The notes below the pieces were generated by a model. That model searched no databases and was not told the DNA's origin. It saw only the letters and a program-made list of their open reading frames with translations. This document shows, one piece after another, positions 53,854 to 64,000 of a DNA stretch of 64,000 bases; positions within the stretch are counted from its first letter, which is position 1, and the number at the start of each line of letters is the position of its first letter. Location of the stretch: assembly GCF_010731675.1 (NCBI RefSeq), contig NZ_AP022584.1:5423850-5487849 (forward strand), in the 5' to 3' direction. Source of the DNA: Mycobacterium marseillense. Its GTDB lineage: Bacteria > Actinomycetota > Actinomycetes > Mycobacteriales > Mycobacteriaceae. The position numbers were made by a program, and so were the translations under genes.

Positions 53854-55128
53854 ATGGCCGTGATGACGGGTACACCGGGGGCCGCGAAGTCGGGCCGCGC
53901 CTACGACGAGATCGACCTGTCCTCGCGGGCGTTCTGGTCGACGACGGCGGCGGATCGGGAACGGTCGTTCGCGGTGCTGCGCGCCGAGCGCCCGGTCAGC
54001 TGGCATCCGCCGGTCGAAGACTCGCTGATGCCCGATCCCACCGATCCCGGCTTCTGGGCGGTCACGCGGCGCGCCGACATCGTCGCGGTCAGCCGCAACA
54101 ACGACGCCTTCCTGTCCGGCCAGGGGGTGATGTTCGAGAGCATTCCGGTCGAGCTGCTCGAGGCGTCGCAGTCGTTCTTGGCGATGGATCCGCCCCGGCA
54201 CACCAAGTTGCGCAAGCTCGCCCACGCGGCGCTGAGCCCCCGGCAGGTGCGCCGCATCGAAGACTCGATCAAGGCCAACGCCAAGACCATCGTCGACGAA
54301 CTGCGGGCCGCCGGCAGCGGCGCGGATTTCGTCGACCACTGCGCCAAAGAGCTACCCATCCGCACCCTCTCGGACATGATGGGAATTCCGGAATCCGAGC
54401 GCGAGCGCATGGCGCACGCCACCGACGCCCTGGTCTCGTGGGCCGACCCGGAATTCCTCAACGGACGCCCGGCGATGGAAGTCCTGGTCGAAAACCAGCT
54501 GTATCTCCACCAGGTCGTCGGCGCCCTGGCCACCGAACGCCGCGAGCACCCGGGCGACGACCTGATCAGCAGCCTGGTGACCGCCGAAGTCGACGGCGAC
54601 CGCCTGGAAGACGCGGAGGTGGCGGCGTTCTTCGTGCTGCTCTCGGTGGCGGGAAACGACACCACCCGCCAGACCATCAGCCACACCCTGAAGGCGCTCA
54701 CCGACTTTCCCGACGAAAGGACTGGCTGCTCGACGATTTCGACAACCGGATCGGCACCTCCATCGAGGAGTTCATTCGGTGGGCGACCCCGGTCATGACC
54801 TTCCGCCGCACGGCGGCAACGGATATCGAGCTGGGCGGTCAGACCATTCTGGCGGGGGAGAAGGTGGTGATGTTCTACCCGTCCGGCAACTGGGACACCG
54901 ACGCGTTCGACCGCCCCGAACGGCTGAACCTGGCGCGCGACCCTAACCCGCACGTCGGTTTCGGCGGTGGCGGGCTGCACTTCTGCCTCGGGGCGCACGT
55001 CGCCCGCGCAGCTGCGGGCCATCTTCCACGAGCTGTTTCGTCAGCTGCCTGGCATCCAGTCGGCCGAGCCGACGTATCTGGCGGGCAATTTCGTGCACGC
55101 CGTGCGCAGCATGCCGTGCACCTTCTAA
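53854..55128 (+). pseudogene. Cytochrome P450 with two frame disruptions
   Basis: The corrected product is about 425 residues. Frame one runs from ATG (GGAGAGGA upstream) through the I-helix AGNDTTR to about 54720. There GAAAGG-ACTGG lacks one G expected for DERDWLLDDF. Frame two carries EEFIRW (ExxR), MTFRR and the haem loop FGGGGLHFCLG with Cys codon 54984-54986. Near 55005 the frame changes again (probably a lost GC in CGCGC) before QLRAIFHELF and the TAA. All catalytic parts are intact once the indels are repaired, so it is either a recent pseudogene or an intact gene with sequence errors. Substrate unknown. Confidence 0.8.
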
Positions 55129-55973
55129 TGCGTTGCCAGCGGTGATAACTCGTCGGCGAGCAGCGCAAGCAGTTCGGAGCACCCGCCGTCGACCTTGACG
55201 GTGGCCGCGTCGTCACCACGGGTGCGCCCGCGGTTGATGATGGCGATCGGGATGCCCAGGGCGACCGCGTGCCGCACGAACCGATAGCCGGAGAACACCG
55301 TGAGCGACGACCCGGCGACCAGCAGCGCGTCGGCCTGGTCGACCATGCTGTACGACTGCGCCACAACGTCTTTCGCAACGCTGTCACCGAAATAGACGAT
55401 GTCGGGTTTGAGCATGCCGGCGCAGCGCACGCAGTCGAGGTAGCGGAACGACGCGGTGTCGGCGACGACGGCGTCGGCATCGGGAGCCACCGCCAGCCCA
55501 CCGATCGCCTCGGCGCGCTCGATGAATCCGGGGTTGAGCGCCTCCAGCTGTTCGGCCAGCGCGGCGCGGCTCATGGTGTGGCCGCAGCTCAGGCAGATCA
55601 CCCGCGCGTAGGTGCCGTGCAGGTCGATGACGTTGCGGCTGCCGGCCTTGGTGTGCAGCAGGTCGACGTTCTGGGTGATGACGCCGGTGACCACGGCCGC
55701 GTCCTCGAGCGCGGCCAGCGCGCGATGGCCCGCGTTGGGCAGGGTGTCGTCCATGTGCCGCCAACCGACGTGGTTGCGGGCCCAGTACCGTTGCCGAAAC
55801 GCCGCATCACCGGTGAACTGTTGGATGGTCATGGGATTGCTGGGCGGTGAGTCGGGCCCGCGGTAATCGGGGATGCCCGAATCGGTGGAGATGCCCGCGC
55901 CCGTCAGCACCGCGATCCGGCGCCCGGCCAGCAGCGTGACCAGCTCCGGGGATTCTGCGCGGGCGACGGTCAC
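55125..55973 (-). CDS. Sir2-family NAD-dependent protein deacylase
   Basis: 282 residues. NAD-binding GAGIS and DYRG motifs at the N-terminus, TQNVD and catalytic His in IDLHGTYARV. Zinc cysteines are CLSC and CVRC, and VYFGD and GSSLTVFSG complete the class II sirtuin pattern. It removes acyl groups from lysine using NAD. The GTG start has TACCCT (complement of 55980-55985) six bases upstream, so it may have its own leaderless promoter within the gap after the hydrolase gene. Its 3' end overlaps the P450 stop tail to tail. Confidence 0.9.
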   Translation of the reverse strand: MTVARAESPELVTLLAGRRIAVLTGAGISTDSGIPDYRGPDSPPSNPMTIQQFTGDAAFRQRYWARNHVGWRHMDDTLPNAGHRALAALEDAAVVTGVITQNVDLLHTKAGSRNVIDLHGTYARVICLSCGHTMSRAALAEQLEALNPGFIERAEAIGGLAVAPDADAVVADTASFRYLDCVRCAGMLKPDIVYFGDSVAKDVVAQSYSMVDQADALLVAGSSLTVFSGYRFVRHAVALGIPIAIINRGRTRGDDAATVKVDGGCSELLALLADELSPLATH

Positions 55974-55979
55974 CTGCCC

Positions 55980-55985
55980 AGGGTA
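55980..55985 (-). promoter_or_regulatory. -10 element (TACCCT) for sirtuin gene
   Basis: Minus-strand TANNNT hexamer with six bases to the GTG at 55973, no ribosome site. Confidence 0.45.
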
Positions 55986-55989
55986 CGGA

Positions 55990-61872: not shown

Positions 61873-63264
61873 TGAACATCTTCGCCTCGTCATGGTTTTA
61901 CTGGGCGGTTGGTATCGCGATCGGATTGCCGGTCGGGATGATCCTGCTCACCGAACTGCACGATGCGCTGCGGCGCCGGCAAAGTCCCCTGGCCAGGCAG
62001 GTCGCATTGCTGCGCAACTACCTGCTGCCGCTCGCCGCGCTGTTGTTGCTCCTGGTTCAGGCCTCGGGGATTCCGGCCGGCGACATTCCGGTGCGCATCC
62101 TCACCACCGTTTTCGGCCTGCTGGTGGTGGTGCTGCTGCTGTCCGGGCTCAACGCGACCGTATTCGAAAGCGCCCCGAAAGAGCTGGCGCAAAGGCTTCC
62201 GATCTTCATCGACGTCGCCCGCATAGCACTGATCTGCGTCGGCCTGGCGGTCATGTCGTCGTACATCTGGGGTGTGCGGATCGGCGGGGTGTTCACCGCG
62301 CTGGGCGTCACATCGGTCGTCATCGGTCTGATGCTGCAGAACTCCGTCGGGCAGATCGTCTCTGGCCTGTTCATGCTGTTCGAGCAGCCCTTCCGGATCG
62401 ATGACTGGCTGGACACCGGCACCGCCCGCGGACGCGTCGTCGAAGTGAACTGGCGCGCGGTGCATCGACACCGGCAGCGGAATCCGGATCATGCCGAACG
62501 CCGCGCTCGCCACCACGTCATTCACCAACCTCAGCCGCCCGCCCGGACCGCACAAGGTGGCGATCACGACGACCTTCGCCACCGCCGACGCGCCCGACCT
62601 GGTGTGCGCGGTGTTGTCGCGGGTGGCCCGGGCGCTGCCGCAGCTCCAACCCGGCAGCGTGCCGCGCTCAGTGCCCGTGGGCGCCGGCCAGTACCGCACG
62701 ACGATCGGGTTGGACTCACCCGCCGAGGCCGGCGCCGCGACGGCCACGTTCCTGCGCTGGGCGTGGTACGCGGCCCGGCGGGAGAATTTGCACCTCGATG
62801 ACGCCGATGACGACTTCTCGACGGTGCAACGTGTGGAGCACGCGTTGCACACGGTGGTCGCGCCGGCGCTGCGGCTCAGCACCGAAGAACAGCGGGCATT
62901 GCGCTCTTCGGCGCGAATCGTCCGCTACGGCACCGATGAAATCGTGGAGGACGCCGGACAGGTGCCCGCGGCGATGACGTTCGTGGTCGCCGGCCGGGTG
63001 CAACTCACCGCCACCGCCGACGACGGGACGGTCGTGCCGATCAGCACCCTGTCCGAGGGCGCATTCCTCGGGCTGACGGCGCTGACCCGCCAACCGAACC
63101 TGGCCAGCGCGTATGCGCTGGAAGAGGTCACCGCGTTGGAGATCGATCGGGAACATCGAGCATCTGGTGATGCGCGCACCGACGCTGCTGCAGAACTTCG
63201 GCAACATCCTCGAGGAGCGGCGCAGCAGGTGCGGACCGCGCGGCGCGGGAGCGTCGCGGGCTAG
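61872..63264 (+). pseudogene. MscS-type mechanosensitive channel with cyclic-nucleotide-binding domain (Rv2434c-like), frame disrupted
   Basis: Corrected length about 465 residues. Several membrane helices (about residues 8-140), the MscS pore/vestibule region (GVFTALGVTSVVIGLMLQNS, FRIDDWL), a beta domain, and a C-terminal cNMP-binding domain (IVRYGTDEIVEDAGQ, GAFLGLTALT). Frame changes: two bases missing near 62463 (VHIDTGSGIRIMPN expected), one near 63153 (EHIEHLVMRAP expected) and one near 63225. It follows the cyclase with a TGATG overlap, so cAMP made by the cyclase could gate the channel, an inference from domain content. Confidence 0.78.
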
Positions 63265-63307
63265 TGGCGATCGCGAGCGCGGCGGGCCGGGCGAAGCGGG
63301 TCGCCAC
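63264..63307. repeat. Third, diverged copy of the GTGGCGATCGC palindromic repeat
   Basis: 44 bp beginning GTGGCGATCGC and ending GGGTCGCCAC, same plan as 22246-22290 and 22301-22345 with several substitutions and one missing base. It starts at the last base of the channel gene's stop codon and precedes proA. Confidence 0.75.
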
Positions 63308-63362
63308 CATTCGGGCTAGTGGGCCGCGTCACCCGGGCTTTGCGGCCGGATACCCTGGTTCA

Positions 63363-64000
63363 ATGAGTCTGCAGGCACCATTCCGCAGCGGAGCGGCAGC
63401 GGGAGCCTGACTTGCGCCGGGAGGTGCACGACGCCGCCCGCCGCGCCCGCGTCGCGTCCCGTGTGCTGGCGTTGTTGCCGACCGTCGCCAAGACCAGGCG
63501 CTGCGCTCGGCGGCCGATGCGATTACCGCACACGCCGAATTGATCCTGTCCGCCAACGCCGAAGACGTCGAGGCCGCCCGCGCCACGGGCACGCCAACCG
63601 CGATGCTCGACCGACTGGCCTTGATACCAAGCGCGTTGAGGGCATCGCCGCGGGCTGCGTCAGGTCGCCGGGCTTCCCGATCCCGTCGGGGAGGTGTTGC
63701 GCGGCTACGTTGCCGAACGGGCTGCAGCTGCGCCAGCAGCGGGTCCCGCTCGGCGTCGTGATGATCTATGAGGGTCGGCCCATGACCGTCGACGCGTTCG
63801 GTTTGGCGTTGAAGTCCGGCAACGCCGTGCTGTTGCGCGGCAGCTCCTCGGCGACCCGGTCCAACCAGGCGCTGGTGCAGGTGTTGCGGGCGTCGCTGGT
63901 CAGCGAGGACCTGCCCGCCGATGCGGTGCAACTGCTGTCGTCCGACGCGACCGCGCCACGGTGACGCATCCTGATCAGGCCGCGGCCTGGTCGATGATCC
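63363..64000 (+). pseudogene. proA: Gamma-glutamyl phosphate reductase, 5' part, with many indels (runs off window)
   Basis: Across shifting frames the ProA sequence is recognisable: LRREVHDAARRARVASRVLA, NAEDVEAARATGTPTAMLDR, GLRQVAGLPDPVGEVLRGY, LPNGLQLRQQRVPLGVV, MIYEGRP, VTVDAFGLALKSGNAVLLRG and ADAVQLLSS. At least eight small gaps break the frame (for example near 63410, 63492, 63623, 63655, 63711, 63942), plus two probable in-frame single-codon losses near 63760 and 63781. It makes glutamate-5-semialdehyde from the ProB product. Such dense damage in a proline-synthesis gene at the window edge points to poor sequence rather than decay. Confidence 0.8.

What the first reader, a model, noticed from the sequence alone, without database searches (positions are those of the whole stretch)
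54715..64000. Cluster of frame-breaking indels rising toward the right edge, including in proA
Before about 54.7 kb all recognisable genes are open. After it the P450 (2 indels), rbsK (1), the adenylate cyclase (about 4), the MscS channel (about 3) and proA (8 or more in 640 bases) are broken, almost always by 1-2 missing G, C or T bases, often in short homopolymers or CG repeats. Conserved motifs continue cleanly on the other side of each gap, without the missense decay of old pseudogenes. nadE, sir2 and the hydrolase between them are intact. The pattern fits low-coverage sequence near a contig end better than mass pseudogenisation.
Basis: partly seen in the sequence, partly recalled or inferred. 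Interest (0 to 1): 0.7.

Follow-up and report, generated by a model that had tools for sequence, protein, structure and literature searches.

The report
Untrimmed duplicate end of circular chromosome
The cluster of broken genes is a sequencing artefact: the last 20 kb of this mycobacterial contig is an error-rich second reading of the first 20 kb of the same contig, and a complete proA is present in the other reading.

Summary
The indels are in the sequence, but they are not biology. The window ends on the last base of contig C1. Window 44180-63996 aligns in one piece, same strand, to C1:1-19759, the first 19.8 kb of the same contig: 99.2%, 6 mismatches, 89 gaps. This is an untrimmed terminal overlap of a circular chromosome. 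Gaps in the window copy rise toward the contig's right end; gaps in the other copy rise toward its left end (Mann-Whitney p = 9e-12). rbsK, MscS-like gene and proA, broken in the window, are open in the start copy. folC, rne, obgE, tetR, sir2 and nadE show the reverse. P450 and cyclase are broken in both, at different places. proA is a complete 464-aa ORF at C1:19000-20394. The same kind of overlap occurs in 11 of 34 other near-closed genomes examined, with the same pooled gradient. Read depth could not be tested.

The parts
44180..63996 (+). Terminal overlap: second copy of C1:1-19759 (contig start), same orientation; the contig ends at window 64000
   Evidence: one alignment, 99.2%, 6 mismatches, 89 gap openings
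44081..45541 (+). folC; left boundary of the overlap lies inside it; open here, 15 gaps in the start copy
   Evidence: 6 of 6 named relatives tested match 43200-45200 once, end to end
46695..49583 (+). rne; open here, broken in the start copy
50465..51979 (+). obgE; open here, broken in the start copy
53854..55124 (+). Cytochrome P450; 2 gaps here, 1 at a different place in the start copy
55125..55973 (-). Sir2 family gene; open here, broken in the start copy
55990..56535 (-). Isochorismatase-like hydrolase; open in both copies
56595..58637 (+). nadE (NAD synthase and carbon-nitrogen hydrolase domains); open here, broken in the start copy
58659..59609 (-). rbsK-like PfkB kinase; 1 gap here, open in the start copy
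59688..61871 (+). HAMP and cyclase-domain adenylate cyclase; broken in both copies, at different places (7 gaps against the start copy, 2 of them extra bases in that copy)
61872..63230 (+). MscS-like channel with cyclic-nucleotide-binding domain; 7 gaps here, 468-aa open frame in the start copy
63350..64000 (+). 5' part of proA, cut by the contig end; 9 gaps; the whole gene is open at C1:19000-20394

Best explanation
The chromosome is circular and was assembled from long, indel-prone reads into one linear contig (C1, 5,487,849 bp) whose two ends both represent the same 19.8 kb (folC to proA). The overlap was not trimmed. Toward each end fewer reads support the consensus, so residual read indels, mostly 1-2 bases and often in homopolymers, accumulate toward the right end in the window copy and toward the left end in the start copy. 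The 'broken' genes are consensus errors in a redundant copy, not pseudogenes. Shown here: the end-to-end identity, the mirror gradient, and which genes are open in which copy. Inferred: the circular molecule, the long-read platform, and low depth as the cause.
For: Window end = contig end. Single collinear same-strand alignment of window 44180-63996 to C1:1-19759. Opposite gap gradients, p = 8.8e-12. Complementary open frames against proteins of three named relatives and a longer stretch of one of them; no frame break shared by both copies in the seven genes traced. Complete 464-aa proA and 468-aa MscS-like ORFs in the start copy; proA runs unbroken through C1:19759, where the overlap stops. 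6 of 6 named relatives tested (of the 80 loci) match the left boundary once and end to end. rpmA, inside the overlap, has one match in 193 and two in 2 of the 195 same-genus genomes with a match (198 searched); the two are G000 and G026, and G026 also has a terminal overlap. Same pooled gradient in 11 other assemblies. Circlator Background and Fig. 1a legend describe this situation.
Against: No reads were available, so depth and platform are untested. 3 of 33 window-copy gaps lie more than 10 kb from the contig end, and 22 of 56 start-copy gaps lie 4-10 kb from the contig start, so the decline is not smooth. The Circlator paper warns that overlapping sequence at both contig ends does not by itself prove circularity.
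Confidence: 0.97

Rival explanations
1. A real 19.8-kb tandem duplication at which the assembly broke, with one or both copies decaying.
For: Two similar copies exist in the assembly, and contig breaks at repeats are known (Circlator passage).
Against: One copy starts at the contig's first base and the other stops 4 bases before its last, and this alignment shows no proA-to-folC junction. Damage depends on distance to each copy's own contig end, with 6 mismatches against 89 gaps, which is not how genes decay. The six named relatives tested have the left boundary once.
Confidence: 0.02
2. True recent mass pseudogenisation of P450, rbsK, cyclase, MscS-like gene and proA in this strain.
For: Frames are broken in the window as deposited.
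Against: rbsK, MscS-like gene and proA are open in the second copy; P450 and cyclase are broken at different places in the two copies. By the same reasoning the housekeeping genes rne, obgE and nadE would be dead in the start copy.
Confidence: 0.01

Closest known systems
Low-quality overlapping contig ends of circular replicons in long-read assemblies (Circlator, PMC4699355, Fig. 1a legend; passages, Background section)
   Same: Near-identical sequence at both contig ends, both of low quality, representing one stretch of a circle.
   Different: Nothing of substance; here the overlap shows how a gene-level reader meets it, as a false cluster of pseudogenes plus duplicated genes.
Residual indel errors of long-read consensus causing false pseudogenes (general knowledge, recalled)
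   Same: Mostly 1-2 base length differences, often in homopolymers, with few substitutions.
   Different: Graded toward the two contig ends; whether the rest of the contig is free of such errors was looked at only in this window.

Membership tests
Untrimmed terminal overlap of a circular contig | Same sequence at both ends of one contig, same orientation, reaching the ends | tested here: met
   C1:1-19759 against window 44180-63996, 4 bases short of the contig end
Untrimmed terminal overlap of a circular contig | Low-quality ends: each copy worse toward its own contig end | tested here: met
Untrimmed terminal overlap of a circular contig | The stretch is single-copy in relatives and its boundaries are continuous there | tested here: met
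   left boundary 6 of 6; right boundary in one relative; rpmA once in 193 of 195 genomes with a match
Untrimmed terminal overlap of a circular contig | Read depth falls at the ends; collapsed copies have single-copy depth | not testable with these tools
   no reads held
Cluster of true pseudogenes | Breaks are fixed in the genome and found in every reading of the locus | tested here: not met
   start copy open for rbsK, MscS-like, proA; no shared break in the seven genes traced
Cluster of true pseudogenes | Substitutions accumulate along with indels | tested here: not met
   6 mismatches against 89 gaps in 19.8 kb

The most novel reading that the evidence does not exclude
This is one case of a common, unflagged defect. 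About a third of near-closed mycobacterial species genomes in this collection may carry 13-26 kb of duplicated, frame-broken contig ends, which would put false pseudogenes and false gene duplications into pan-genome and gene-loss studies despite completeness near 100% and low contamination scores.
Probability: 0.75. Interest if true: 0.35.

Novelty: not a real feature. Interest (0 to 1): 0.14.

Why it matters
Taken at face value the locus suggests loss of proline synthesis, of a cyclase and channel pair and of other genes. The second copy removes that reading: proA is whole at the other end of the contig. [quoted passage not shown] The 11 of 34 other near-closed assemblies with such an overlap suggest that the check is worth running on public genomes as routine.

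Tried and rejected
The relative-ORF proxy for frame breaks left of the overlap flagged 7 of 29 places. I rejected them as breaks. Six overlie intact ORFs of ordinary length in the window: SSB-like, RpiB-like with Fpg/Nei-like, beta-lactamase-like, trigger factor, ClpP1/ClpP2 and homocysteine-methyltransferase-like (names recalled from reading the ORFs, no family search). The seventh, 39019-39370, lies before the Rpf-like ORF with no gene evident. A DNA-level count of frame-changing gaps against that relative was noisy: 0 to 12 per 4 kb in the window, highest at 28-32 kb. The start copy stood clear of this with 33 and 21 in its first two 4-kb bins. That relative lacks the cyclase and MscS-like genes, so it could not test 59.6-63 kb; L018 and L024 did.

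In one search the automatic choice of relative ORFs included some that are not the gene on that strand or that run several genes together (for example one each at the rplU-rpmA and sir2-P450 stretch of L018, and at the sir2-P450 and proA stretch of L024); I did not use those rows. Piece counts there also hide some breaks: P450 in the window counts as one piece, but at 75% identity against 94% in the best start-copy piece, and rbsK against L018 is one piece in both copies (64% against 83%). One search, with a higher gap-opening cost asked for and the default used where nothing came back, separated these and was used for the statement on shared breaks. It also corrected my first view of the cyclase: the start copy changes frame three times, not once.

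Considered and rejected: a link with the second contig C2. It is not a copy of C1, carries resolvase, ParA-like, TrwC relaxase, MMPL and PIN-domain genes, and has no exact terminal overlap of 12-2000 bases.

Paper searches were seen as listings only, apart from the Circlator paper (passages, Background section). These listings showed no survey of how often deposited genomes keep such overlaps; that is a statement about these six searches only.

Full report
What was checked. The finding says that genes right of about 54.7 kb are broken by small indels that rise toward the window's right edge. The ORF list confirms broken frames for P450, rbsK, cyclase, MscS-like channel and proA, and open frames for sir2, the hydrolase and nadE (Pfam families).

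Where the window lies. A search of the window's own genome placed it at G000:C1:5423850-5487849 and found a 97% second copy of its last kilobase at C1:18743-19759. C1 is 5,487,849 bases long, so the window's last base is the contig's last base. BLAST of the window against the first 60 kb of C1 and the second contig gave one match above 300 bases: window 44180-63996 to C1:1-19759, same strand, 99.2% identity. The contig's two ends therefore hold the same 19.8 kb.

Mirror-image errors. The alignment has 6 mismatches and 89 gap openings: 33 where the window (END) copy is shorter and 56 where the START copy is shorter. Per kilobase, END-copy gaps are 0 over 44.2-50.2 kb and 14 in the last 817 bases. 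START-copy gaps are 14 in the first kilobase (44180-45179) and 0 to 2 per bin from 52.2 kb on. The two sets of positions differ strongly (medians 62200 and 48492, Mann-Whitney p = 8.8e-12). Single-letter gaps in the END copy fall in runs of 3 or more in 21 of 26 cases and in the START copy in 21 of 42; such runs hold about 12% of the bases. A gap marks a length difference only; which copy is wrong comes from the frames.

Which copy is right, gene by gene. Proteins from three named relatives (L014 Mycobacterium sp. WUMAC-067, L018 M. colombiense GF28, L024 M. parascrofulaceum ATCC BAA-614) were compared by tblastn with both copies. rne, obgE, tetR and nadE are in one frame in the END copy and in two or three frames in the START copy against all three relatives; sir2 does the same against L014, the relative with a clean ORF for it. 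The MscS-like gene (L018, L024) and proA (L014, L018) show the reverse; rbsK shows it against L014 and L024. A longer stretch of the first relative adds folC to the first group. The hydrolase is open in both copies. A finer trace of seven genes (cyclase, MscS-like, proA, P450, rbsK, nadE, sir2) found no frame change at the same place in both copies: P450 changes frame twice in the END copy and once elsewhere in the START copy, and the cyclase changes frame in both copies at different places. proA is a 464-aa ORF at C1:19000-20394, and the MscS-like gene a 468-aa ORF. A search with that proA found a match in 41 of 41 genomes. The own genome has one full match without stops, three fragments at the contig end, and four weak short matches elsewhere (E 1.8e-5 or worse).

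Boundaries. The overlap starts inside folC and ends inside proA. The 2 kb around the left boundary match 6 of 6 named relatives tested once and end to end. At the right boundary the START copy runs on through proA, and a relative aligns across it (rel 66165-69875 to C1:19062-22768). rpmA, inside the overlap, was searched in 198 genomes of the genus: 195 have a match, 193 once and 2 twice, the two being G000 and G026 (the place of G026's second match fell outside the printed rows). G026 also has a terminal overlap.

How common it is. I compared the first and last 20 kb of C1 in all 14 other genomes with at most three contigs: 3 of 14 have a direct terminal overlap (2 of 9 same genus, 1 of 5 same order). 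In 20 further single-contig genomes of the genus, 8 of 20 have one. That is 10 of 29 in the genus and 11 of 34 in all, with estimated lengths of 13.5 to 26 kb; overlaps above about 40 kb would have been missed. Pooled over these 11, gaps in the START copy by fifth of the overlap are 137, 101, 44, 22, 17 and in the END copy 20, 33, 27, 80, 92 (p = 8e-45). Individual cases vary: G086, G106 and G119 show no clear end effect, and G017 shows one mainly on the START side. For overlaps above 20 kb the outermost bases were not in the compared stretches.

Reading. This is the situation in the legend of Fig. [quoted passage not shown] The same paper warns that matching contig ends need not mean a circle. 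Here the contig has chromosome size, the stretch holds housekeeping genes, and relatives tested have it once, so a repeat-induced break is unlikely. Low depth at the ends is the usual cause (recalled) and fits, but no reads were at hand.

Limits. The named relatives place the window in Mycobacterium. That genus contains a control-list species, so I counted and compared only. I give no list of corrections and made no merged sequence.

Noticed in passing
Loci L124-L151 and L152-L191 (first and last 20 kb of 34 unnamed contigs): 11 of 34 other near-closed genomes (10 of 29 same genus) carry an untrimmed direct terminal overlap of 13.5-26 kb, with the same pooled error gradient.
   Followed up: partly
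window 63256-63323: Short repeat between the MscS-like gene and proA with nearly 60 short dispersed matches in the genome, some in tandem about 55 bp apart (for example C1:2803495-2803728; also window 22246-22345); resembles MIRU-type repeats (name recalled).
   Followed up: no
window 59688-63230: An adenylate cyclase with HAMP domain sits directly before an MscS-like channel with a C-terminal cyclic-nucleotide-binding domain, which suggests a cyclic-nucleotide-gated channel pair. The pair is found in relatives L018 and L024 but not between rbsK and proA in L014.
   Followed up: partly
L013 (C2, 17,972 bp): Second contig is plasmid-like: resolvase, ParA-like ATPase, TrwC relaxase with helicase domain, MMPL transporter, PIN-domain protein. 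Its MMPL stretch (about 10760-14045) matches C1:3702118-3705406 at 76%.
   Followed up: partly
L014 around 12040-17707: The relative WUMAC-067 carries about 5.6 kb between nadE and rbsK that this genome lacks.
   Followed up: no
G026:C1:18853-19098: The assembly G026 also has its terminal overlap over the rpmA neighbourhood, so two of the overlaps broke in the same gene region; chance or a shared cause was not tested.
   Followed up: no
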